Positions 20,219 through 49,226 of a stretch of 64,000 nucleotides of DNA are shown piece by piece; position 1 is the first letter of the stretch; each line of letters opens with the position of its first letter. A program made the position numbers and the translations under genes. The notes under the pieces were generated by a model that ran no database searches, was not told the origin of the DNA, and saw only the letters and a list, made by a program, of their open reading frames with translations. The DNA is taken from positions 16,935-80,934 of the forward strand of contig PMSN01000010.1 in NCBI GenBank assembly GCA_003167555.1. The letters are read 5' to 3'. The DNA is from Spartobacteria bacterium (GTDB lineage Bacteria > Verrucomicrobiota > Verrucomicrobiia > Chthoniobacterales > UBA10450).

Positions 20219-21325
20219 CTATTGTCTACTCAAGCGCCGGAACATCCAGAAGCCCAGCGCTAGAAAGAGCACGTTGGGGACCCAGACCAGCAGTTCGGGA
20301 TGGAGCTTCGGATTCGCGCGCAAGGTATCGGCGATGATGATGAAGAGGAAATAGAAGACGCCCACGACCAGACTCATCGCGAAACCAGAGGAGGTTTCGC
20401 GGCGATGCGCGGTAATGCCCAACGGCACGCCGACCAAGGCGAAAACCATGCAGGCCAGCGGGAAGGAGAAGCGTTTGTTGATCTCGGTGCGGCTCGAGCT
20501 GCGCATCTTGGAATCGCCGGTTTTCAATTGCTCCAGCAGTTGCTCGAGCGAAAGCATCGAACGGCTGGCGCGCCGCTTTTCCTTTTCGTAAAGGTCCTCC
20601 AGGCTGATGGGAAGCGTGCCTTCCGCCACGTTGACTCCATCGCGCATTCGGCGCAGATCGTAAGGCTCGGTTTCATCGCGTTGCTGGTAACGGGCGTTAT
20701 AAATGTGCATGAGGATGCGATGGTTCGGCAGATCGGTTTCGAGCAGGCCGGTGCGCGCGTGCGTCACTTTCATCGGCATCGCCTCGTCGTTGAATTCGAA
20801 AACGAGGATGTTCTCCAGTTTGTTTCCTTCTTTCTTGCCGACATAAATTTTCCGGCCGGGAAACTGATCGATCACCTGGTCGCTGCCGAACAATGCCATC
20901 GGATTGCGCGTGGCCAGGTTGAAGACGGTGGCGCGCATTTCTTCCTGGGCCGCGGGTGCGACCACAACGTTGAGCCAGAGCGATGCGGCCGTGCTGACGA
21001 GCGCGACCGCCAGGAGCGGAATGCAAATGCGCGTGATGCTGACGCCATTGGAACGAAGCGCGGTCAATTCGTTATCAGCCGAGAGCCGGCCGAAGACGAG
21101 CAGGACCGCGGTGAGCAGGCCCCAGGGAATCGTGAAGATGAGCGAGAACGGCAGGACGTAGGCGACGAAGCCGATGAGGTATTCGACCGGGAGATCGTGG
21201 TTGACGAGAAGCGGGAGGAGTTTGCGAAAGATGTTGCCGACGACGAGGACGAAGCTGAGCACGGCGACGGCGAACAAGAGATTCACCACCAACTGGCGCA
21301 GGATGTAGCGATCGATCAATTTCAC
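20219..21325 (-). CDS. LptF/LptG family permease (YjgP/YjgQ)
   Basis: MKLIDRYILRQLVVNLLFAVAVLSFVLVVGNIFRKL...GVPLGITAHRRETSSGFAMSLVVGVFYFLF. Confidence 0.9.
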   Translation of the reverse strand: MKLIDRYILRQLVVNLLFAVAVLSFVLVVGNIFRKLLPLLVNHDLPVEYLIGFVAYVLPFSLIFTIPWGLLTAVLLVFGRLSADNELTALRSNGVSITRICIPLLAVALVSTAASLWLNVVVAPAAQEEMRATVFNLATRNPMALFGSDQVIDQFPGRKIYVGKKEGNKLENILVFEFNDEAMPMKVTHARTGLLETDLPNHRILMHIYNARYQQRDETEPYDLRRMRDGVNVAEGTLPISLEDLYEKEKRRASRSMLSLEQLLEQLKTGDSKMRSSSRTEINKRFSFPLACMVFALVGVPLGITAHRRETSSGFAMSLVVGVFYFLFIIIADTLRANPKLHPELLVWVPNVLFLALGFWMFRRLSRQ

Positions 21326-21447: not shown

Positions 21448-23043
21448 CTAATGATTCCAACCAGGAATCGATTTGCTCAAAACGCCGTCGCGCGTTTGGG
21501 CCGTGGCGGCGAGCTGCGCGTTGAGTTCCTGCAAAAGCGCGCGGTCGGTTTTCCGCACAGCGAATCCCATTTTTTCCAGTTCGAGGCCCGGGACAATCTC
21601 GGCGGTGATATCGGTCTGGGCCAGCTCCGCCCCGATCGATTGCTTCAGCTCGGCGACTTTTTGGAGCGCGTACGGCTTGTCCATTAACGCGCCATCGATC
21701 CGCTCCGCCAGGAGATCGGCAAGCATGCGGTCGTAGGCGCCGCTTCCCGCGTAGGGCACGAAGCGCTCGGTCGCGGTCTCGCCGAGAAGTTTGCGGGCGA
21801 AGGTTTCGTTCGTCGTCTTCTCCGCGGCGCCCACTCGTGGCAGGATCAGTTTGCCTTGCTCGAACGGTTTCACGCCCGGCTTCGCGATCATCGTCTGTGG
21901 ATATTGGAGCGTCGGCTCGGTGAAAAGGAGTCCGTAAGTTTTCTCTCGCTCCGGCGTGATGGAAATGGCCGATGCGATCAGGTCGACACCACCGTCGCGC
22001 TCGAGCAGCCGAAAAAATTCCTCGCCCCAGATCCGCCGCGTGTAAGTGATTGTGGGTTTGGCCGTGATGCCGTGCGCGGCCAGAATGCGCGTGCCGAGGT
22101 CGCGCAGCAGCTCGATCTCGTAGCCGGTCAATTCCGCGCCTTCCTGGCGAACGAAAAATCCATCCGGCTCCGCGGTCCCGACATGAATGGTGCGCGTGGC
22201 GATGATGCGATTCAGCGCGCTCGGAAAATAAACGAAGCTCTGTTCCTTGTTCCACTCGCCAAATCGCTCGCGCTCGCCGGGCCGCTGCCAGATTGGCCGC
22301 ACCTTCCACATCACCTTTCCCTCGATTCGCTGCGGCACGATTGAGTTGCGCGCGGTGCGTTGCACAATCGGCGCCTTGCCCGCCGGCGTCAGCGAAACCT
22401 CGAACGAAAGATTTTCCTGGCTCAGTTCTTTGCTCGTCCATGAGAGGAGCAGCGGGCCGACGATCGAAGCATTGGGCGCCGGATTTTCCAACTGCACCGT
22501 TTGGCCCGCCGGTTTGTGCCGGAGAAACCATGCGCCACCGCCAATCGCAAGCAACGCCGCCAGCGCGACGGAAGCCCAGAGCGCGACCGGCCGCTTTCGC
22601 GCTTTCTTCTCGACAGTCGCGGCTCCGCTCGGCGACGCGGAACGCCGTTGCAGCGCGAGGATAGCGTCCGCGAGTTCGCCGATATGTTTTTCCAGCGGCG
22701 GGTTCATCGCGTCGAGCCAGTGACAACTGCTGATAAAATATTCGAGGTCCTTCGACGGGACGACATCGGCGACGCGGAACGGAATGATCGAGACACCTTT
22801 GTTCACAGCGCGCTCGATTTCGCGCATCACCTGCGGCGAGCCATTCGAATGCTCGGAGAAAATCACCACCATCACCGCGCTGTCGCCGATCCCTTCGATG
22901 ATGGCGGAGCCCCAGGTGCGTCCCGGCCCGATGTCGCGCGGGGCGATCCAGCACCGGATCTTGTTTGCCTCGAGCGTCCCGCAGACGGCGTCGGCGACCT
23001 TCTTGTCTTCCGAGCAGTAGCTGATGAAAGCGTCGTAGGGCAT
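21448..23043 (-). CDS. TIR domain - transmembrane segment - periplasmic amino-acid-binding-like (SBP_bac_3) protein
   Basis: N-term MPYDAFISYCSEDKKVADAVCGTLEANKIRCWIAPRDI...SEHSNGSPQVMREIERAV (TIR); ALWASVALAALLAIGGGAWFL (TM); C-term TIHVGTAEPDGFFVRQEGAELTGYEIELLRDLG...GVDLIASAISITPEREKTYGLLFTEPTLQ (SBP3). Start moved to 23043. Confidence 0.88.
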   Translation of the reverse strand: MPYDAFISYCSEDKKVADAVCGTLEANKIRCWIAPRDIGPGRTWGSAIIEGIGDSAVMVVIFSEHSNGSPQVMREIERAVNKGVSIIPFRVADVVPSKDLEYFISSCHWLDAMNPPLEKHIGELADAILALQRRSASPSGAATVEKKARKRPVALWASVALAALLAIGGGAWFLRHKPAGQTVQLENPAPNASIVGPLLLSWTSKELSQENLSFEVSLTPAGKAPIVQRTARNSIVPQRIEGKVMWKVRPIWQRPGERERFGEWNKEQSFVYFPSALNRIIATRTIHVGTAEPDGFFVRQEGAELTGYEIELLRDLGTRILAAHGITAKPTITYTRRIWGEEFFRLLERDGGVDLIASAISITPEREKTYGLLFTEPTLQYPQTMIAKPGVKPFEQGKLILPRVGAAEKTTNETFARKLLGETATERFVPYAGSGAYDRMLADLLAERIDGALMDKPYALQKVAELKQSIGAELAQTDITAEIVPGLELEKMGFAVRKTDRALLQELNAQLAATAQTRDGVLSKSIPGWNH

Positions 23044-23148
23044 GCGCCCGCGATCATAACGCGCGAGCCGGCACATTGGCAATGCGACCGTCTCCGATGC
23101 GCTCTCGCGATAATTTCCTTTCACGACGCTCCGGCGCAGTCTTAGTTC

Positions 23149-23907
23149 ATGACAACGATGCATCGATTGTTGTCCGTGCTCTTTTTTGCGATCAGTCTGC
23201 CCGCGGCAATGCGTGCGGGTGGAAAGTCCGAGTTAAACAAAAGTGGGCAGTGCCTGGTTGTCCTGACGGATAACTGGGACGCAACGAACGGTATGGTGCG
23301 AACGTTCGAACGGAATAAGGCAACGGGCACTTGGAAAGATCGCGGTCCCGCGTTCCCCGTCGTCGTGGGCAAGAAAGGTTTGGGTCAGGGCCTCGGGCTG
23401 GTCGCAATTGAATTCAAGGGCGCGCCCATGAAAAAGGAGGGCGACAACAAAGCGCCGGCCGGAATTTTCCGGCTCTCATCCGCCTTTGGTTACGCGCCGC
23501 GGCGCTCGGCCCGCTGGATACGACTGCCGTACGTGGCGCTCTCGAAAGAAACGGAAGGCATCGACGATCCGAAGTCGCGCTACTACACGCAATTGGTCGA
23601 CCGTTCCAAGATCGCGCATCCGGATTGGCGCAGTTCCGAACAGATGTTGCGCAAGGACGTGCTCTACAAATGGGGCGTAGTCGTTGAGCATAACGCCCGG
23701 GCAATTCCCGGCGCCGGTTCGTGCATCTTTCTCCACATCTGGAAAGATTCGTCGTCGGCCACGGCCGGTTGCACCGCGATGCGCGAGAAGGATCTCGTCG
23801 CACTGCTCCGCTGGCTGGACCCCAAACGGCGGCCCGTTTTGATCCAGATGCCGAGAGCGGAGTACGCCAGACTGCGAATAAAATACGAGTTACCGGGAGA
23901 TCGTTGA
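23149..23907 (+). CDS. L,D-transpeptidase (YkuD-like) family protein, secreted
   Basis: Signal peptide; APAGIFRLSSAFGYAP; CIFLHIWKDSSSATAGCTAM catalytic Cys region. Confidence 0.82.
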   Translation: MTTMHRLLSVLFFAISLPAAMRAGGKSELNKSGQCLVVLTDNWDATNGMVRTFERNKATGTWKDRGPAFPVVVGKKGLGQGLGLVAIEFKGAPMKKEGDNKAPAGIFRLSSAFGYAPRRSARWIRLPYVALSKETEGIDDPKSRYYTQLVDRSKIAHPDWRSSEQMLRKDVLYKWGVVVEHNARAIPGAGSCIFLHIWKDSSSATAGCTAMREKDLVALLRWLDPKRRPVLIQMPRAEYARLRIKYELPGDR

Positions 23908-23952
23908 ATGGTGCGTTTGCATCCCCCGGAAGTTTGCTACCTTGATGGCCGC

Positions 23953-25251
23953 ATGAAATACGACGTGGCGATCATTGGCGGCGGACCCGCCGGCAGCATC
24001 GCGGCCGCTTTGCTCGCGCGCGCTGGGCGCCGCGCCGTGGTGTTGGAGCGCGACAAGTTCCCGCGCTTCCACATCGGCGAATCGCTTTTGCCCTTTAGCA
24101 TGCAGGCTTTCACCCGGCTCGGCTTGCATGAGAAATTCGCCCGGGCCGGTTTCATGGAAAAATTTGGCGGCGAGATGTACGGGGCGTGCAGCGAGCAGGG
24201 CGTAAAATTTTATTTCGAAGACGGCTTCCGCTCCCAAACCGACCGCTCCTATCAGGTGACGCGCGCGGAGTTCGACAAAGTCCTGCTCGATCACGCTGCG
24301 GAAAGCGGCGCGGAAGTGCGCGAGGAAACATCGGTTGAAAACGTCGCGTTCCCCGACGGCGAAGTGCTATTGCGGATCACTCCGAAGAATGGCGTCAGCG
24401 AAGGAATCTCCGCGCAGTACGTCATCGACGCGAGCGGACGCAATTCAATTGTGGGTTCGCAGTTCAAGCTCAAGAGAAACTACGACCATCTCCAAAAGAT
24501 TTCGCTCTTCGCGCATTACGACGGCGTGGAGCGCGCCGAAGGCCGTGATGGAACTCTCACCCGCATGGTGCGCGCGATCGATCGCTGGTTCTGGGTTATT
24601 CCCCTGACCGCCACACGCACGAGCATCGGCGTCGTGCTGGATCATCCCGTCTTCAAAAAAGCCGGTTTGAGCCCGGAAGAATTTCTCGAGCAGGCGATCG
24701 AGGAGCAGCCGCTGCTCATGCGGAGAATGAGTGTCGCGGAACGAGTCTCGCCGGTTCGCACCGCCGCCGATTTTTCCTATCGCAACACGCGGCTGACCGG
24801 CGAGCGCTGGCTGCTGGCGGGCGACGCGGCGGGTTTCATCGATCCGGTTTTCAGCAGCGGCGTTTTCCTCGCGGTCCTCGCCGGCGAACAATGCGCCGAC
24901 GTTTTGCACGAAGTGCTCGACCATCCGGGCCACGCGCGCCGCCTGTTCGCGCGTTACGCGCGCAACATTAACAAGGCCATGGATGTTTATCTCCGCTTCG
25001 TCAACGCGTGGTACTCGAAGGAATTTATTGAAGTGTTCCTGCATCCGCAGGATTTCCTGCAAATTCCGCCGGCGGTGAACGCCGTCCTGGGCGGCAATGC
25101 CGGGACGAGCTTCGCCATCAAATGGCGCATGTCGGTTTTCTATATGCTCGTTTGGCTGCAGCGCTATTTGCCGCTCTGCCCGCGCCGCAGTCTCGTCCCG
25201 CAGAAGGAAGAGGTTTCGCCAACGCCTGAGCCCGCGTGCGCCATTTCATGA
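23953..25251 (+). CDS. FAD-dependent oxidoreductase (geranylgeranyl reductase / halogenase-like, PHBH fold)
   Basis: MKYDVAIIGGGPAGSIAAALLARAGRRAVVLERDKFPRFHIGESLLP; WLLAGDAAGFIDPVFSSGVFLAV. Confidence 0.9.
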   Translation: MKYDVAIIGGGPAGSIAAALLARAGRRAVVLERDKFPRFHIGESLLPFSMQAFTRLGLHEKFARAGFMEKFGGEMYGACSEQGVKFYFEDGFRSQTDRSYQVTRAEFDKVLLDHAAESGAEVREETSVENVAFPDGEVLLRITPKNGVSEGISAQYVIDASGRNSIVGSQFKLKRNYDHLQKISLFAHYDGVERAEGRDGTLTRMVRAIDRWFWVIPLTATRTSIGVVLDHPVFKKAGLSPEEFLEQAIEEQPLLMRRMSVAERVSPVRTAADFSYRNTRLTGERWLLAGDAAGFIDPVFSSGVFLAVLAGEQCADVLHEVLDHPGHARRLFARYARNINKAMDVYLRFVNAWYSKEFIEVFLHPQDFLQIPPAVNAVLGGNAGTSFAIKWRMSVFYMLVWLQRYLPLCPRRSLVPQKEEVSPTPEPACAIS

Positions 25252-25658
25252 AGATCCTTCTGGTCGCCTTTGCGATTGTCGGCCTAACGAGCTGTGAAAC
25301 AATGCGCCACCAATTCGCGGGCCCGGCGCTCGACTGGCAGGCCCGCAATGGCCAGCTTCTTTACCACGGCCGGAAGACGACCTTGATCGGCGAAGTGCTC
25401 GTGCGGTTTTCGAAAGCGGGCGATCTCGAGCTGACTTTTACGAAGGGTCCCGGCGTGCCGCTTTTGGAAGTGCGGCAGGACGCAAACTTCGCCCGCGTGA
25501 GCGGTCCGCTCGCCCGCGGCTCGTGGTCGGGCCCGACCGGGCAAGCCCCGATGCGGCTGCGCGGATGGCTGGAATTGCGCGAAGTGCTGATGGCCTCGGG
25601 CGAAAAATTATCCGTGCACCACGAGTTCGGCCAGGAGCGTTTCATTTTCCGCTTTTGA
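25248..25658 (+). CDS. Small predicted lipoprotein
   Basis: MKILLVAFAIVGLTSCETMRHQF lipobox LTSC; overlaps previous stop. Confidence 0.7.
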   Translation: MKILLVAFAIVGLTSCETMRHQFAGPALDWQARNGQLLYHGRKTTLIGEVLVRFSKAGDLELTFTKGPGVPLLEVRQDANFARVSGPLARGSWSGPTGQAPMRLRGWLELREVLMASGEKLSVHHEFGQERFIFRF

Positions 25659-25706
25659 CCGGCGCGGGTTGAAACGCGAGCGTCGCGCCTCCCGCCGAAC
25701 GTAGTC

Positions 25707-28238
25707 ATGCCTTTTCATTCTTTCATCGCCAAGCTCGTCACTCAGCGCCGCGCCGCGGTCTGGTGGGCGGTCGCGCTGATCAGCGCCGCTTCGATTTACG
25801 TCCTGGTGACGCGGATGAAGCTCGATACCGAGGTGCTCAACCTTCTCCCGACCGGATTCGAATCGGTCGAGGGCCTGAAAGTTTACAACCGCGATTTTTC
25901 GCAAGTGCGCGAGCTGACTTTCGCTCTGGTCTCGCAGCCCGAGGATGTCGACAAGCTGGAGGAATTCGCGCCGCAGTTTGCGCAACGATTGCGCGAACAG
26001 CCATGGTGCACGCGTGTCCTCGCAGGCGCGCCGATCGAAACACCCGAAGGCATTCGCGATTTACAATCGATCGCCGTTCCGCTCCTGCTGAACCTCGAGC
26101 CGGCCGCGTTCAACGAGACGCTCGCGCTCCTCGAACCGCAGAAAATTCGCGAGCGGTTGCAGAGGCTCCATCAGGAATTGGAAGCGGGCTCGCCGCGGCC
26201 GCAGATCGAATTGGGCCTCGATCCGCTCGGTGTCATCGGGCCGGCATTGAAACCTTTCGCCGGCAACGCCGCCATGGAAGAAGACCAGCCTCTCACGTCG
26301 CCCGACCGTACCATGCGCGTCTTCCTCACGGTCACGAACCAGGCGAGCCTCAGCGCGTTCGATTGCCAGAAACTGATGCGGGAAGTGAAAGCATTTCAGC
26401 AATCCGCGCACGAAGGCTGGGACGGCGGCCCGCTTCAAATCCTCGTGACCGGACGCTCCGCCTACGTCGCGGAGATTTCGTTGAGCATGCGGCACGACAT
26501 CGTCATCACGCTGCTCGGCTCGATCGTTTTGGTGGGCGCGGTTTTCTACATCGGGTTTCATCGCTGGCTGCCGCTCCTCGGAATGGGGTTTTCGCTGCTG
26601 CTCTGCTGCCTCGTCGCGCTCGCCGCGGGCCTCCTGATTTTCCACGAGCTCAACATGGTCACGGTCGGATTTTGCGCGATCCTGATCGGCCTCGGAGTCG
26701 ATTTCGCGATTCTGGTTTTTGGCCGTTACCAGCAAGCGCGCGATGAAGGGAGCGATCACACCGCGGCCGTGAGCGAAGCCGTGCTCACGCTCGGGAAAGC
26801 GATTTTTTTCGGCGCGCTCACGACGGCGGTCGGTTTCATGGCGCTGCTTTTGGCGGGCTCGCGCGGATTCACCCAGCTTGGCGTCTTGATCGCGCTCGGC
26901 ATTAGTTTCGCCGGCATCTTTATGCTGACGGTTTTCTTCCTCGTGCTCCCGCGCAAAGCTTCCACGCCGCGGCGCGACTGGATGTTTGACCTCGTGAAAA
27001 AATACGTGCGTTGGACGGTGCGGCGGCCCGGACCAATGCTCTGGATTTCCATTCCCCTCCTTCTCCTTCTCACGGCGATCGCGCTTTCCCCGCGCCCGCC
27101 GATTATCTTCGACGTGAGCACGCACTCGATGGAACCGAAGCGGAGCGACGCCGGTTACGCCCTCAAGACCATCATGGAAAAAATGCCGGCGCGCTGGGAA
27201 CCGGTCATCGGGATGGTGCAGGCGAAAGATCCGCAACAACTGCACGATTACTGGCAGAAGATCGCCGCGCACTGGACCGAAGTGCAGGCGGCCGGAAAAA
27301 TAAAAGGCTTTTCAACTCCGGCGGCGCTGGCCTTATCGCCCGCGCGTTTGCAAACCAACCGGGAAAGGCTCCGAAGCGCAAATCTCTCGGCCGCGCGGGA
27401 CGCGCTCGAAGCCGCGATCGCAGCGGAAGGTTTCAGCCGCGAGACTTTCGATTCCGCTTTCACGTTGCTCGAACAATTGCAGGGCGCGGCTTATCCGTCC
27501 GTGCAATTGCCGGATTGGCGAACGCAATTGCCGCCGGCCTCGAGCTGGTGGTTTCTGGTCGACCGCTATTTCGCGCACGATCCTCTTCTCGCGACGGGAT
27601 TCGTGACGACGAACGAGCCGGTCGCGACCCAGGAGCAAAAGGAAATGCTGCATCGCGAATTGCCCGTCGCGGGAATCCCGATGGTCCTGTCGGGCTGGAG
27701 TTTTACGCTCACGGATTTGGTGCCGTGGTCGCAGCGCCAGCTCATCTTGATCAGCGCGTTGATGGCGATCTTCGACGTCACGCTGCTCGCGGTGCTTTAT
27801 CGCGACTGGCGTCTCTGGCTGATTCAAGTCGCCACCCTCGCCATGGCCGTCTGCGCGATGATCGCATCGATGAAGGTGCTCCAGATCCCGCTCAATCTGC
27901 TCAACGTCCTTGCCTTTCGGCTCGTCCTCGCCATCGGAGTCGATTACGGAATCTATGTGCTTCTGGTCTGGCAAAAAGCGAGGCAGCTCGATCACGATGT
28001 CGCCGGCGTGGTCAAGCCGGTGATTCTGGCCGGCTTGACGGCGATCTGCGGCTTCGGTTCGCTCGGCGCCGCGAACAATCCGACGCTGGCGGGACTGGGT
28101 TACGCGTGCGCGCTTGGTTTGTTCTGGAGCCTGGCCGCGACGATTTTTTTCACTTTGCCCGCGGCGGCTGCGGCTGAACCGAAGTCGTGGCGCGAAGAAT
28201 CTTTGCAGCCACGCGTCAAAGAACCTGAAAATGTTTAA
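25707..28238 (+). CDS. MMPL/RND family exporter
   Basis: 843 aa, two multi-TM blocks, VGFCAILIGLGVDFAILVFGRYQQARDEG and VLAFRLVLAIGVDYGIYVLLVWQKARQ. Confidence 0.88.
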   Translation: MPFHSFIAKLVTQRRAAVWWAVALISAASIYVLVTRMKLDTEVLNLLPTGFESVEGLKVYNRDFSQVRELTFALVSQPEDVDKLEEFAPQFAQRLREQPWCTRVLAGAPIETPEGIRDLQSIAVPLLLNLEPAAFNETLALLEPQKIRERLQRLHQELEAGSPRPQIELGLDPLGVIGPALKPFAGNAAMEEDQPLTSPDRTMRVFLTVTNQASLSAFDCQKLMREVKAFQQSAHEGWDGGPLQILVTGRSAYVAEISLSMRHDIVITLLGSIVLVGAVFYIGFHRWLPLLGMGFSLLLCCLVALAAGLLIFHELNMVTVGFCAILIGLGVDFAILVFGRYQQARDEGSDHTAAVSEAVLTLGKAIFFGALTTAVGFMALLLAGSRGFTQLGVLIALGISFAGIFMLTVFFLVLPRKASTPRRDWMFDLVKKYVRWTVRRPGPMLWISIPLLLLLTAIALSPRPPIIFDVSTHSMEPKRSDAGYALKTIMEKMPARWEPVIGMVQAKDPQQLHDYWQKIAAHWTEVQAAGKIKGFSTPAALALSPARLQTNRERLRSANLSAARDALEAAIAAEGFSRETFDSAFTLLEQLQGAAYPSVQLPDWRTQLPPASSWWFLVDRYFAHDPLLATGFVTTNEPVATQEQKEMLHRELPVAGIPMVLSGWSFTLTDLVPWSQRQLILISALMAIFDVTLLAVLYRDWRLWLIQVATLAMAVCAMIASMKVLQIPLNLLNVLAFRLVLAIGVDYGIYVLLVWQKARQLDHDVAGVVKPVILAGLTAICGFGSLGAANNPTLAGLGYACALGLFWSLAATIFFTLPAAAAAEPKSWREESLQPRVKEPENV

Positions 28239-45048: not shown

Positions 45049-47115
45049 GTGGGCCCGAAGAACTTCTTCGCCGAGCTGAAGCGGCGCAATGTTTACAAGG
45101 TCGCGGTCGCGTACGCGGTCGTGGCGTGGTTGTTGATTCAAGCAGCTTCGATCCTGTTCCCGACCTACGAAGCGCCGGTCTGGGTGATGAAGGTTTTCGT
45201 GGCGGCCGTTATTCTGGGATTTCCGATCGCGCTTGTGATTGCCTGGGCGTTCGAGATGACGCCGGAAGGGATGAAGCGGACGGAGAACGTTTCGCCCGAT
45301 GAGGTGATCCCGCAGTGGAGCCGCCGGAAGTTCGCGGCCCTGATTATTACCCTGGCTCTGGTCGCAGCGGGTTTGCTGGCGTTCCAATTTTTGCGCCCGA
45401 GATCGACGGAGGTGGTTCGCACGACAACTTCACCTCCGACCACCTCGCCCACCGCGCCGCCGATCCCGGAGAAATCGATCGCAGTCCTTCCATTCGAGAA
45501 TCTGAGCGACGACAAGAGCAACGCTTACTTCGCCGATGGCATTCAGGATGAAATCCTGACGCGCTTGTCCAAGATCGCCGCTCTAAGAGTCATCTCGCGC
45601 ACCTCCACCCAGAAATACAAAAGCGCTCCGGACAATTTGCGGGAGATCGGGAAGCAGCTCGGCGTCGCGAACCTGCTCGAAGGCAGCGTGCAAAAGATTG
45701 GGAACGCCGCGCATATCAACGTCCAGCTCATCCGGGTCGCCACGGACGAACACCTCTGGGCGGAAAGTTACAACCGGAAGCTAGACGATATCTTCGCCGT
45801 CGAAGGGGAAGTCGCGACCGCGATTGCCGATCAGCTGAACGCGAAACTTACTGGCAGCGAAAAGGAATCGTTAACCATCAAGCCTACTTCCAATCCCCAG
45901 GCCTACGATGCCTACTTGCGCGGCCTCGCGTTTCAAGGCCGAATAGACGGAGTTGATTCAAACGTAGCGAAGTCAATCGAAGCCTTTGAAGAGGCGACGC
46001 GACTAGATCCTCAGTTTGCGCTGGCCTGGGCGCAATTGGCTCGGCAAGACAGTATGGCCTATCAAAATTTCGACCGTTCGCCGCAACGGCGAGAGGCGGC
46101 GCGACAGGCAGTCGAAAATGCGGTCAGATTGGCGCCGAACCTGGCTGAGACGCAGTTGGCCGAGGGGCTCTACCAGTCTTCTTTTGAGCGAAACTATGAC
46201 GCCGCCAAAAGCCGCTACGAGGCGGCCCGGCAACGCTTCCCTAACAATGCGTTCGCAACCGCAAGCCTGGGTGGCGTGGCCCGCATCCAAGGTCAGTGGG
46301 ACCAGAGCCACCAGTTTTTCGAGCAGGCCATCGAGCTCGATCCTCAGAACGTTTTCCTACTCGCCGTCGCTTCGCTGACCGATCTGGGAAGGCGCGACGT
46401 TGCTTCCGCGAGAAAGCTTCTCGAGCGCGCCCGCAATCTCAGCCCGCAAAATTCTACGGTTACCGCGATGCTGGCGCTGACCTATCAGATGACCGGCGAC
46501 TTCGCGCAAGCAGAGACGTTGCTCGCCGGTGTCACGCCGGCTGATGGGGACGGCTGGTACTTTGGGGTTATGGCTTACAACGCGATCCTTTTGCGCAAGT
46601 ACGACCCCGCGATCACGATGTTAAAAGCGCAACTGAGCAAGTCACTTCCTGCTAGTAGACTAGGTTCATTTCAGGGTACGTTAGCCGACCTGGAGAGACA
46701 CGCCGGGAACGCCGGCGCGGCGGCGCAAGCCTACGAGCAAGCGCGTCTCAGCTTTGAAACTCTTCTGAGCGAGCAAGCCGACAACGCAACTCTTATTAGC
46801 AGCCTGGCTTGGACTGAAGCGTGTCTGGACCATAAGGACAAAGCACTCGATCTGGCACGAAAAGCCATTGTCGTGGACCCGACGTCGAAGAATGCCTATA
46901 CCGGCCCGGAGCGCGAAGAAATGCTGGCGCGCATCGAGGCGCATTTCGGTGACAAGGACAACGCGATCGCTGCGCTCCAGCACTTACTCAGCATCGCCTA
47001 TGGCCAGCCCCCGGTGACGCCGGCCTTGCTGCGAATCGATCCCGATTGGGACAACCTCCGCGGCGATCCACGCTTCCAGAAATTAGCCGCCGAACCTCTC
47101 AGGCAAACGAAGTGA
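45049..47115 (+). CDS. Membrane-anchored FlgO/TolB-like + TPR protein (paralog 1)
   Basis: FFAELKRRNVYKVAVAYAVVAWLLIQ...KSIAVLPFENLSDDKSNAYFADGIQDEILTRLSKIAALRVISRTSTQKYK; TPRs. Confidence 0.82.
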   Translation: MGPKNFFAELKRRNVYKVAVAYAVVAWLLIQAASILFPTYEAPVWVMKVFVAAVILGFPIALVIAWAFEMTPEGMKRTENVSPDEVIPQWSRRKFAALIITLALVAAGLLAFQFLRPRSTEVVRTTTSPPTTSPTAPPIPEKSIAVLPFENLSDDKSNAYFADGIQDEILTRLSKIAALRVISRTSTQKYKSAPDNLREIGKQLGVANLLEGSVQKIGNAAHINVQLIRVATDEHLWAESYNRKLDDIFAVEGEVATAIADQLNAKLTGSEKESLTIKPTSNPQAYDAYLRGLAFQGRIDGVDSNVAKSIEAFEEATRLDPQFALAWAQLARQDSMAYQNFDRSPQRREAARQAVENAVRLAPNLAETQLAEGLYQSSFERNYDAAKSRYEAARQRFPNNAFATASLGGVARIQGQWDQSHQFFEQAIELDPQNVFLLAVASLTDLGRRDVASARKLLERARNLSPQNSTVTAMLALTYQMTGDFAQAETLLAGVTPADGDGWYFGVMAYNAILLRKYDPAITMLKAQLSKSLPASRLGSFQGTLADLERHAGNAGAAAQAYEQARLSFETLLSEQADNATLISSLAWTEACLDHKDKALDLARKAIVVDPTSKNAYTGPEREEMLARIEAHFGDKDNAIAALQHLLSIAYGQPPVTPALLRIDPDWDNLRGDPRFQKLAAEPLRQTK

Positions 47116-49226
47116 ACCCGCGAAACTTCTTCGCCGAGCTGAAGCGGCGCAATGTCTACCGCGCGGCGGTAGCTTATGGAGTCGTCGCGTGGTTCCTCAC
47201 TCAGCTCACGACGCAGGTCTTTCCCTTCTTCGACATTCCAAACGCAGCGATTCGCTTTGTCGTCATTGCGCTCGCGCTTGGTTTTCCCATCGCGATGTGT
47301 CTCGCCTGGCTCTACGAGTTCACGCCTGAGGGTATTGTTCGCTCCGAAGACCTCGATTCGGCTAAGGTACCGTCTGCACGCCGCGCGACGGGCCGAATTC
47401 TCGATTTCATCATCATCGGCGTGCTCTTGCTGATTATTGCGATGCTGATTTACCAGCGCGTTCCGTCTCGTACCGAAACCGGCGAAACCATTCCGCAAAA
47501 GAGCATCGCGGTGTTGCCCTTCGAAAACCTGAGCAGCGACAAGGAGAACGCCTACTTTGCCGACGGGATTCAGGATGAAATTCTCACCAAGCTCGCCAGC
47601 ATCGCCGACCTCAAAGTCATCTCGCGAATCTCGACGGCAAAGTACAAGAGCAAGCCGGAAGATCTAAAGACCGTCTCACAACAGTTAGGTGTCGCCACGG
47701 TGTTGGAAGGGTCCGTGCAACGAGCTAACGACAAAGTGCGCGTCAACGTGCAACTCATCGACGCACGCACGGACACACACCTCTGGGCGAAGAGCTACGA
47801 CCGCGACTTTAAGGATATCTTCGCGGTAGAGAGCGAAGTCTCGCAGGGGATCGCGGATGCGCTCCAGGCAAAGCTATCGCCTAACGAGACCAGCAATTTG
47901 GCCGCAGCGCCGACGCGAGATCCGGAGGCCTACGATTTATTCTTGAGAGGCGAGTACGAGGAGCACGAGGCTGAAACCTCGCGCAAGCCCGACGCATTCG
48001 ATCGGGCGGCAGCCTGGTATGGGCAGGCGATCGCACGTGCTCCCGACTTCGCGCTCGCCATCGCCCGACTGGTCGAAAGCCGCATTGCACGCCATTGGAC
48101 AGTCGATCGTCTAAGCAATGCTGACTTGGACGAAGTCAAGAAGGCTGCGGACCATGCGCTGGCCGTGGCACCTGATCTGGCGGAGGCGCATACCGCACTG
48201 GGGTCATATTATTTCCTCGGCAAGGAAGATTACGGTCCAGCGCTCGGAGAACTTCAGCGCGCCCTTGAACTGCAACCAAACAACGTCAGAGCTTTGAGAA
48301 CTTTCGCAAGCATCCATGCGCGTCAGGGTCATTGGGAGCGCTGTCTGTCTGAATACGCCCAATGCCAACGGCTAGACCCGCGGGACGCTCAGCTAGTGGC
48401 AAACGTTGGATTGACTTACCTTAATCTGCGGATGTGGAACGACGCGAAGCGCGCCGGTTCACATTCGATAGCGCTGGATCCGCACAACGTGTACGGAATG
48501 CGCGCTGTTCTCTTTAGTTATCTTAATGGAACCGGCGACATCGAAGAGGCAACGCGCGTCCTGAGGACGTTTCCTCCTGGCGCTCTCCTCATCACCAGAG
48601 CGTGGGACCTTGAAAACATCATCGGGGACAGAGCTTATGTAGATGTCATTAAGCGGGACTTCGGAGCTGCTCTGAAACAATGGGAGAAGGAGAACAGCGA
48701 TCCCACCGCAAATCGGGAGCGGCTCTCTGCCAGAGTTGCGATTCATGTGCTGGCTGGTGATACCGCGGAGGCGCACGATGAAATTGAGCGAGCGCGCGGC
48801 CTGGTAGAGGCAAGATTGCGCGAGCAGCCGGAAGACAAGAATGCTCTGACGCAGCTAAGCTGGATCGAGTTGGCGCTGAAGCGCGAGACCGAGGCTCTGA
48901 GGCTGGCGCGGCAGGCGGCTGAGTTATTGCCGCCGGAGAAGGATGCCATGGGCGGCCCGATCGCTCTCGCCGGATTTGCGGAAATCGCGGCGCGCACGGG
49001 CGAGACAAACGAAGCTGTCAAAGCACTTCGACGGTTACTCTCCATTCCCGCCGGCTGGACCGTTTCGATCCAGTCTGGGACCCGATCCGCAACGATCCCG
49101 GCTTCCAACAACTGCTCGCCGGCAAGGAGCAGATCGGGCCTAACAAGTAGCGACGGCTCGAAGATGAAGCGAGCCATGGCGATTATCAAGTTGACCGGAA
49201 GCAAAAGGAACGAACGTTCGCTCTGA
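47112..49226 (+). CDS. Membrane-anchored FlgO/TolB-like + TPR protein (paralog 2), probable 3' frameshift
   Basis: GTG 47112 overlaps previous stop; FFAELKRRNVYRAAVAYGVVAWFLTQ...KSIAVLPFENLSSDKENAYFADGIQDEILTKLASIADLKVISRISTAKYK. Confidence 0.82.
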   Translation: MNPRNFFAELKRRNVYRAAVAYGVVAWFLTQLTTQVFPFFDIPNAAIRFVVIALALGFPIAMCLAWLYEFTPEGIVRSEDLDSAKVPSARRATGRILDFIIIGVLLLIIAMLIYQRVPSRTETGETIPQKSIAVLPFENLSSDKENAYFADGIQDEILTKLASIADLKVISRISTAKYKSKPEDLKTVSQQLGVATVLEGSVQRANDKVRVNVQLIDARTDTHLWAKSYDRDFKDIFAVESEVSQGIADALQAKLSPNETSNLAAAPTRDPEAYDLFLRGEYEEHEAETSRKPDAFDRAAAWYGQAIARAPDFALAIARLVESRIARHWTVDRLSNADLDEVKKAADHALAVAPDLAEAHTALGSYYFLGKEDYGPALGELQRALELQPNNVRALRTFASIHARQGHWERCLSEYAQCQRLDPRDAQLVANVGLTYLNLRMWNDAKRAGSHSIALDPHNVYGMRAVLFSYLNGTGDIEEATRVLRTFPPGALLITRAWDLENIIGDRAYVDVIKRDFGAALKQWEKENSDPTANRERLSARVAIHVLAGDTAEAHDEIERARGLVEARLREQPEDKNALTQLSWIELALKRETEALRLARQAAELLPPEKDAMGGPIALAGFAEIAARTGETNEAVKALRRLLSIPAGWTVSIQSGTRSATIPASNNCSPARSRSGLTSSDGSKMKRAMAIIKLTGSKRNERSL

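What the first reader, a model, noticed from the sequence alone, without database searches (positions are those of the whole stretch)
21448..23043. TIR - transmembrane - solute-binding-protein fusion: a receptor-like prokaryotic TIR protein
Seen: an N-terminal TIR-like domain (DAFISYCSEDKKVA...; Glu in SPQVMREIERAV where the NADase catalytic Glu is expected), one hydrophobic segment, a beta-rich spacer (QLENPAPNASIVGPLLLSWTS...), then a complete SBP_bac_3/amino-acid-binding-like domain. Known: bacterial TIR domains are often NAD-consuming effectors or signal producers, and SBP3 domains sense small polar ligands. Inference: extracytoplasmic ligand binding may gate cytosolic TIR activity, an analogue of receptor TIR proteins. 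No dedicated effector gene is adjacent. The divergent neighbour is a cell-wall L,D-transpeptidase with ~105 bp between them.
Basis: partly seen in the sequence, partly recalled or inferred. Interest (0 to 1): 0.78.

Follow-up and report, generated by a model that had tools for sequence, protein, structure and literature searches.

The report
Bacterial TIR receptor with solute-binding sensor
A verrucomicrobial bacterium encodes a single-pass membrane protein that joins a TIR domain (an immune-type domain that may cut NAD) inside the cell to an amino-acid-binding sensor outside it, and the same sensor occurs elsewhere joined to a caspase-type enzyme, which suggests a plug-in sensor for bacterial danger or cell-death signalling; no activity has been tested.

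Summary
The gene at 21448-23043 (minus strand, 531 aa) encodes TIR_2 (6-113, E 1.3e-20), one TM helix with a basic N-side flank (153-171), an Fn3-like sandwich (about 181-273) and an SBP_bac_3 domain (about 274-531, E 1.1e-9). It is a real, conserved fusion: an 86%-identical full-length orthologue exists, another is split across contigs, one is frameshifted and one is reduced to its last 44 codons, all beside the same YkuD and LptG genes; a further congener has that junction empty. dN/dS is about 0.06 for TIR and SBP. The putative catalytic Glu (E75) is invariant in 29 TIRs of the genus, and the ligand-contact residues of HisJ are present. Most likely a one-component transmembrane receptor in which an amino-acid-like ligand gates TIR activity. 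NADase activity, ligand and output are untested. I found no published TIR-SBP fusion; caspase-TM-PBP fusions are published.

The parts
21448..23043 (-). TIR-TM-Fn3-SBP3 gene, 531 aa, ATG to stop TAG included
   Evidence: orthologues start at the same Met
22645..23043 (-). TIR_2 domain, predicted cytosolic (aa 1-133; Pfam 6-113), WIAPRD loop aa 32-37, putative catalytic E75
22531..22587 (-). single transmembrane helix (aa 153-171), KKARKR on its N-side, predicted N-in/C-out
   Evidence: hydropathy and charge only
22225..22503 (-). Fn3/Ig-like beta sandwich (aa 181-273)
   Evidence: confident part of models; Foldseek Fn3 hits
21451..22224 (-). SBP_bac_3 domain (aa 274-531) with HisJ-type ligand-residue equivalents S361, R366, T411, D455
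23053..23082 (-). sigma70-like promoter TTGCCA-18-TATGAT, ends about 10 nt before the ATG; similar stretch in other genomes of the genus
   Evidence: 1 found, 0.2 expected in shuffles
23149..23907 (+). divergent YkuD (L,D-transpeptidase-like) gene; possible functional partner
   Evidence: linkage
20219..21325 (-). LptF/LptG permease gene, the other flank of the site; not claimed as part of the function

Best explanation
It is a one-component, single-pass transmembrane receptor. The C-terminal SBP3 clamshell, held off the membrane by an Fn3 domain, binds an alpha-amino-acid-like small molecule in the periplasm. Closure of the clamshell changes dimer or cluster geometry through the TM helix, so that the cytosolic TIR domains assemble and act, most likely by cleaving NAD+ (either to make a nucleotide signal or to stop growth). 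Shown here: domains, single hydrophobic segment, conservation and selection, conserved key residues, and re-use of both halves with other partners. Inferred: topology in the membrane, amino-acid-like ligand, ligand-driven TIR assembly, NAD+ cleavage, and the biological output (stress or danger sensing).
For: Pfam domains over cut-off. Both end domains are under strong purifying selection (dN/dS 0.056 TIR, 0.063 SBP) while the linker/TM is loose (0.35). E75 is invariant in 29 TIRs. S361/R366/T411/D455 align with HisJ S72/R77/T121/D161 and are kept in the Nitrospira-binned homologue. 25 of 33 sampled TIR ORFs of the genus have one hydrophobic segment after the TIR and differing outer regions, e.g. 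OmpH (L006), SH3_3 (L032). The Fn3-SBP half is re-used with an N-terminal caspase, the pattern expected of a sensor module attached to alternative effectors.
Against: No activity or ligand data. No confident structural model of TIR or SBP. In the caspase version the N-terminus looks like a signal peptide and no TM lies between caspase and sensor, so that effector would be outside the cytoplasm and the sensor is not shown to signal across a membrane there. The gene is frameshifted in one congener, deleted in another and absent from its site in a third, so the function is dispensable.
Confidence: 0.55

Rival explanations
1. The same receptor, but the TIR is a scaffold (adaptor) that recruits another protein rather than an NAD+-cleaving enzyme.
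For: Many TIR domains work by assembly (general knowledge); 6-25 TIR_2 matches per genome could be mutual partners.
Against: E75 and its surroundings are invariant in all 29 aligned TIRs of the genus, as expected of a catalytic residue, though a structural role is not excluded.
Confidence: 0.22
2. Cell-wall damage sensor (a special case of the receptor reading): the SBP binds a D-amino acid or peptidoglycan fragment released or consumed by the neighbouring L,D-transpeptidase-like enzyme, so TIR (or caspase) activity reports on wall integrity.
For: Divergent YkuD gene 105 bp away; a YkuD gene also lies near the caspase-SBP gene, and that YkuD has no match in 60 other genomes of its family. It is 40-47% identical to the junction YkuDs versus 35-38% to their paralogues, about what the faster YkuD rate within the genus predicts for joint transfer. 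A phage-type lysozyme gene lies upstream of the caspase gene.
Against: YkuD stays in congeners that lack the TIR gene. The promoter is separate. Transposase-like ORFs lie between YkuD and the sensor gene in L002. The closest named SBPs are amino-acid importers; nothing here fixes the ligand. One contig only.
Confidence: 0.2
3. Nutrient (L-amino-acid) receptor unrelated to danger or defence, in which TIR tunes NAD+ metabolism or gene expression.
For: Best-scoring SBP models are Lys/Arg/Orn and His binding proteins; surroundings look like core genes, no defence island; PADLOC hits are weak and TIR-only.
Against: TIR and caspase are both effector-type domains in known conflict systems; one sensor attached to both is easier to explain as danger signalling.
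Confidence: 0.15
4. Chance or artefact: assembly chimera or recent non-functional fusion.
For: The TIR form was found in one genus only; one copy frameshifted, one deleted.
Against: Separate genomes carry it at the same site with dN/dS about 0.06 at dS about 1.
Confidence: 0.03

Closest known systems
Caspase-TM-extracellular PBP proteins of 'System 4' (EACC1 system), Kaur et al. 2020, PMC7159879
   Same: Effector-type domain joined to a periplasmic-binding-protein domain; the caspase of the L002 homologue matches the EACC1-associated type (below the model's cut-off).
   Different: Here the effector is TIR; neighbours are LptG and YkuD, not an EACC1 gene; SBP family 3 with Fn3; Verrucomicrobiota rather than mainly Actinobacteria.
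Toll/IL-1 receptor family
   Same: Single-pass protein with an outer sensor and a cytosolic TIR (layout as described in PMC7075850).
   Different: Inverted order (TIR N-terminal), SBP/Fn3 instead of LRR or Ig ectodomain, no known adaptor; analogy only.
SBP_bac_3 sensor proteins (SBP3 domains in histidine kinases, MltF)
   Same: SBP3 domain used as a sensor rather than for uptake (general knowledge).
   Different: The output domain is TIR.
Bacterial TIR effectors such as ThsB (Thoeris), Cat1, SpbK (PMC12847820)
   Same: TIR domain with Glu at the putative catalytic position; Cat1 aligns through this region, weakly.
   Different: Those respond to intracellular cues and have no SBP sensor; the ThsB model matched weakly and below cut-off.

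Membership tests
TIR domain (Pfam TIR_2, PF13676) | Score over curated cut-off across the domain | tested here: met
   74.6 bits vs 28, positions 2-109 of 122
TIR domain (Pfam TIR_2, PF13676) | NAD+-cleaving activity (of the enzymatic TIRs) | not testable with these tools
   E75 conserved in 29 of 29 aligned TIRs; activity needs an assay
SBP_bac_3 (PF00497) | Score over curated cut-off | tested here: met
   38.6 bits vs 26.4; PDB alignments along most of the domain
SBP_bac_3 (PF00497) | Amino-acid-coordinating residues of HisJ type | tested here: met
   S361, R366, T411, D455 by alignment; the role of the HisJ residues is from general knowledge
Toll-like receptor | N-terminal LRR ectodomain, C-terminal cytosolic TIR | tested here: not met
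   TIR is N-terminal; the outer part is Fn3-SBP3
Thoeris (ThsA/ThsB) | ThsB-type TIR over cut-off and an adjacent ThsA effector | tested here: not met
   ThsB_TIR 18.3 vs 21.2 bits; neighbours are LptG and YkuD
Kaur 'System 4' (EACC1) | Caspase gene with an upstream EACC1 gene | tested here: not met
   Window protein has TIR, not caspase; neighbours are LptG and YkuD
Kaur 'System 4' (EACC1), for the L002 homologue | Caspase of EACC1 type plus adjacent EACC1 gene | tested here: inconclusive
   caspase_w_EACC1 72.5 bits, cut-off 140; no EACC1 search was done

The most novel reading that the evidence does not exclude
A modular family of bacterial transmembrane danger receptors: one TIR-TM chassis paired with many interchangeable periplasmic sensors in one lineage, with at least one of those sensors (Fn3-SBP3) also joined to a caspase elsewhere, and that sensor travelling with an L,D-transpeptidase because it monitors the cell wall.
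Probability: 0.2. Interest if true: 0.85.

Novelty: new variant of a known kind. Interest (0 to 1): 0.6.

Why it matters
Well-studied bacterial TIR proteins act on intracellular cues (general knowledge). A TIR protein with a periplasmic small-molecule sensor would give bacteria a Toll-receptor-like layout and make the question 'can extracellular signals gate bacterial TIR activity?' directly testable with one protein and a ligand screen. The TIR/caspase exchange on one sensor would tie two death-type effectors to the same input.

Tried and rejected
AlphaFold models of the whole protein and of Fn3-SBP: mean pLDDT 42.9 and 45.7, only the Fn3 part usable. Searches without a relative of the query (protein, sensor or TIR profile): plasmids with the whole protein, viral contigs with SBP and TIR profiles, 389 other genomes sampled in the phylum, 294 other genomes sampled in the phylum of the Nitrospira-binned MAG. 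A profile search of 385 genomes of the class gave, outside the genus, only a 48-residue piece near a contig end (G922, 48% identity) and a generic SBP. Rejected: assembly artefact (orthologues); defence-island membership (core-gene surroundings by eye; PADLOC hits weak and TIR-only). Ten paper searches found no TIR-SBP protein; they cover only the held open-access library.

Full report
OBSERVATION. The 531-aa ORF at 21448-23043 minus is as described. Pfam gives TIR_2 at 6-113 (1.3e-20), SBP_bac_3 at 296-516 (1.1e-9) and TIR at 3-81 (5e-7), all over curated cut-offs. PDB sequence matches to the C-terminal part are amino-acid binding proteins (ancestral AncCDT-1, a cationic amino-acid binding protein, histidine-binding protein), and to the TIR part a bacterial TIR protein and, weakly, Cat1. 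A single hydrophobic stretch lies at 153-171 with KKARKR before it; all four Cys are in the TIR part. That supports N-in/C-out, but only by hydropathy and charge. The spacer is an Fn3/Ig-like sandwich: residues about 191-280 are the better part of the model and Foldseek matches it to Fn3 domains. The rest of both models is unreliable.

IT IS A CONSERVED FUSION. L001, from a Spartobacteria MAG, is a full-length 86%-identical orthologue in the same place. Of the eight genomes of the genus held (own included), G412 has the gene split over two contigs, G411 has a reading-frame change in the Fn3 part, and G409 keeps only the last 44 codons, with a promoter-like stretch similar to that of the intact copies still in front of the remnant. 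G413 has YkuD and LptG adjacent with no gene between; G415 has them on different contigs; in G414 neither the junction YkuD nor LptG was found, so absence there says little. So the gene is accessory at one junction. Pairwise dN/dS against L001 is 0.056 (TIR), 0.141 (Fn3), 0.063 (SBP) and 0.35 (linker and TM), dS about 1: both end domains are held by selection.

KEY RESIDUES. E75 is invariant in all 29 aligned TIRs of the genus, as are W32, R36, N67, S69, R90, H108 and W109. By phmmer alignment S361, R366, T411 and D455 correspond to HisJ S72, R77, T121 and D161, which from general knowledge contact the alpha-carboxylate and alpha-amino groups of the ligand. All four are unchanged in the two homologues. 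This points to an amino-acid-like ligand; it does not identify it.

MODULARITY, TIR SIDE. The genomes of the genus have 6-25 TIR_2 matches each. Of 33 distinct TIR ORFs recovered from the loci I fetched (window gene and its orthologues included), 25 have exactly one hydrophobic segment, at about 150-257, followed in nearly all by a further region (sequences). Pfam finds OmpH in L006 and SH3_3 in L032; the outer region of L019 has no Pfam hit. The beta or NTF2-like character of others is my reading of the sequence only. One ORF has several hydrophobic segments (L036) and seven have none.

MODULARITY, SENSOR SIDE. In a 20.8-kb contig binned as Nitrospira sp. LK70 (L002), residues 177-531 recur at 66% identity behind a signal-peptide-like N-terminus and a Peptidase_C14 domain (5.2e-16) with YYAGHG and VADSC motifs, i.e. 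the His and Cys expected of a caspase. The best NCBIfam match of the caspase is the EACC1-associated type, below that model's cut-off. No hydrophobic segment lies between caspase and sensor, so there the effector would be outside the cytoplasm. Kaur et al. (PMC7159879, section 33) already report caspase-type proteins with TM helices and a downstream extracellular PBP domain. The contig carries transposase-like genes and could be mis-binned; the pairing of domains does not depend on the name.

THE YkuD LINK. A YkuD gene is divergent, 105 bp from the window gene, and a YkuD gene lies about 3.5 kb past the L002 sensor gene with transposase-like ORFs between. The L002 YkuD has no match at 1e-10 in 60 other genomes of its family and is somewhat closer to the junction YkuDs (40-47%) than to their paralogues (35-38%). 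Within the genus YkuD changes faster than the SBP (dN 0.33 vs 0.07), so 42% beside 66% is compatible with joint transfer. This is suggestive and rests on one contig; YkuD also persists without the TIR gene.

HOW IT MOST LIKELY WORKS. Ligand in the periplasm, closure of the SBP clamshell, change in dimer or cluster geometry through the TM helix, TIR assembly, NAD+ cleavage, then a nucleotide signal or growth arrest. 'Sensor outside, TIR inside' rests on sequence; every step after ligand binding is inference from how TIR proteins work in general. The gene has its own sigma70-like promoter ending about 10 nt before the ATG, so the message may be nearly leaderless. The rival confidences in this report overlap: the cell-wall reading is a special case of the receptor reading.

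NOVELTY. TIR domains and SBP3 sensors are known, and caspase-TM-PBP fusions are published. Ten searches of the held open-access library found no TIR-SBP protein and no account of an expanded TIR-TM-periplasmic family; a subscription paper could exist. I rate it a new variant of a known kind.

Noticed in passing
L006, L021, L032, L033, L067, L069, L074, L086, L095 and others: Expanded congeneric family of TIR_2-TM proteins with varied outer regions (OmpH, SH3_3, unclassified domains); 6-25 TIR_2 matches per genome.
   Followed up: partly
L094:5994-9482: A 1161-aa protein in a congener with TIR, WD40-like repeats and a GTPase/COR-like region (by eye), reminiscent of conflict-system proteins.
   Followed up: no
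L002:1925-4832: Upstream of the caspase-SBP gene: a phage-type lysozyme gene and a second secreted caspase gene with a weak DUF4384 match.
   Followed up: no
window 45049-49226: Two consecutive long ORFs with near-identical starts (FFAELKRRNVYKVAVAY...), apparently duplicated membrane-anchored proteins.
   Followed up: no
window 23908-28238: FAD-dependent oxidoreductase-like gene, small lipoprotein-like gene and large RND/MMPL-like gene (by eye) next to YkuD; the two large genes are in the same order in L001.
   Followed up: no
L119 (G922 contig C42), other family of the order: 48-residue piece 48% identical to the SBP C-terminus near a contig end, with an in-frame stop not far upstream: a remnant or a distant relative.
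   Followed up: partly
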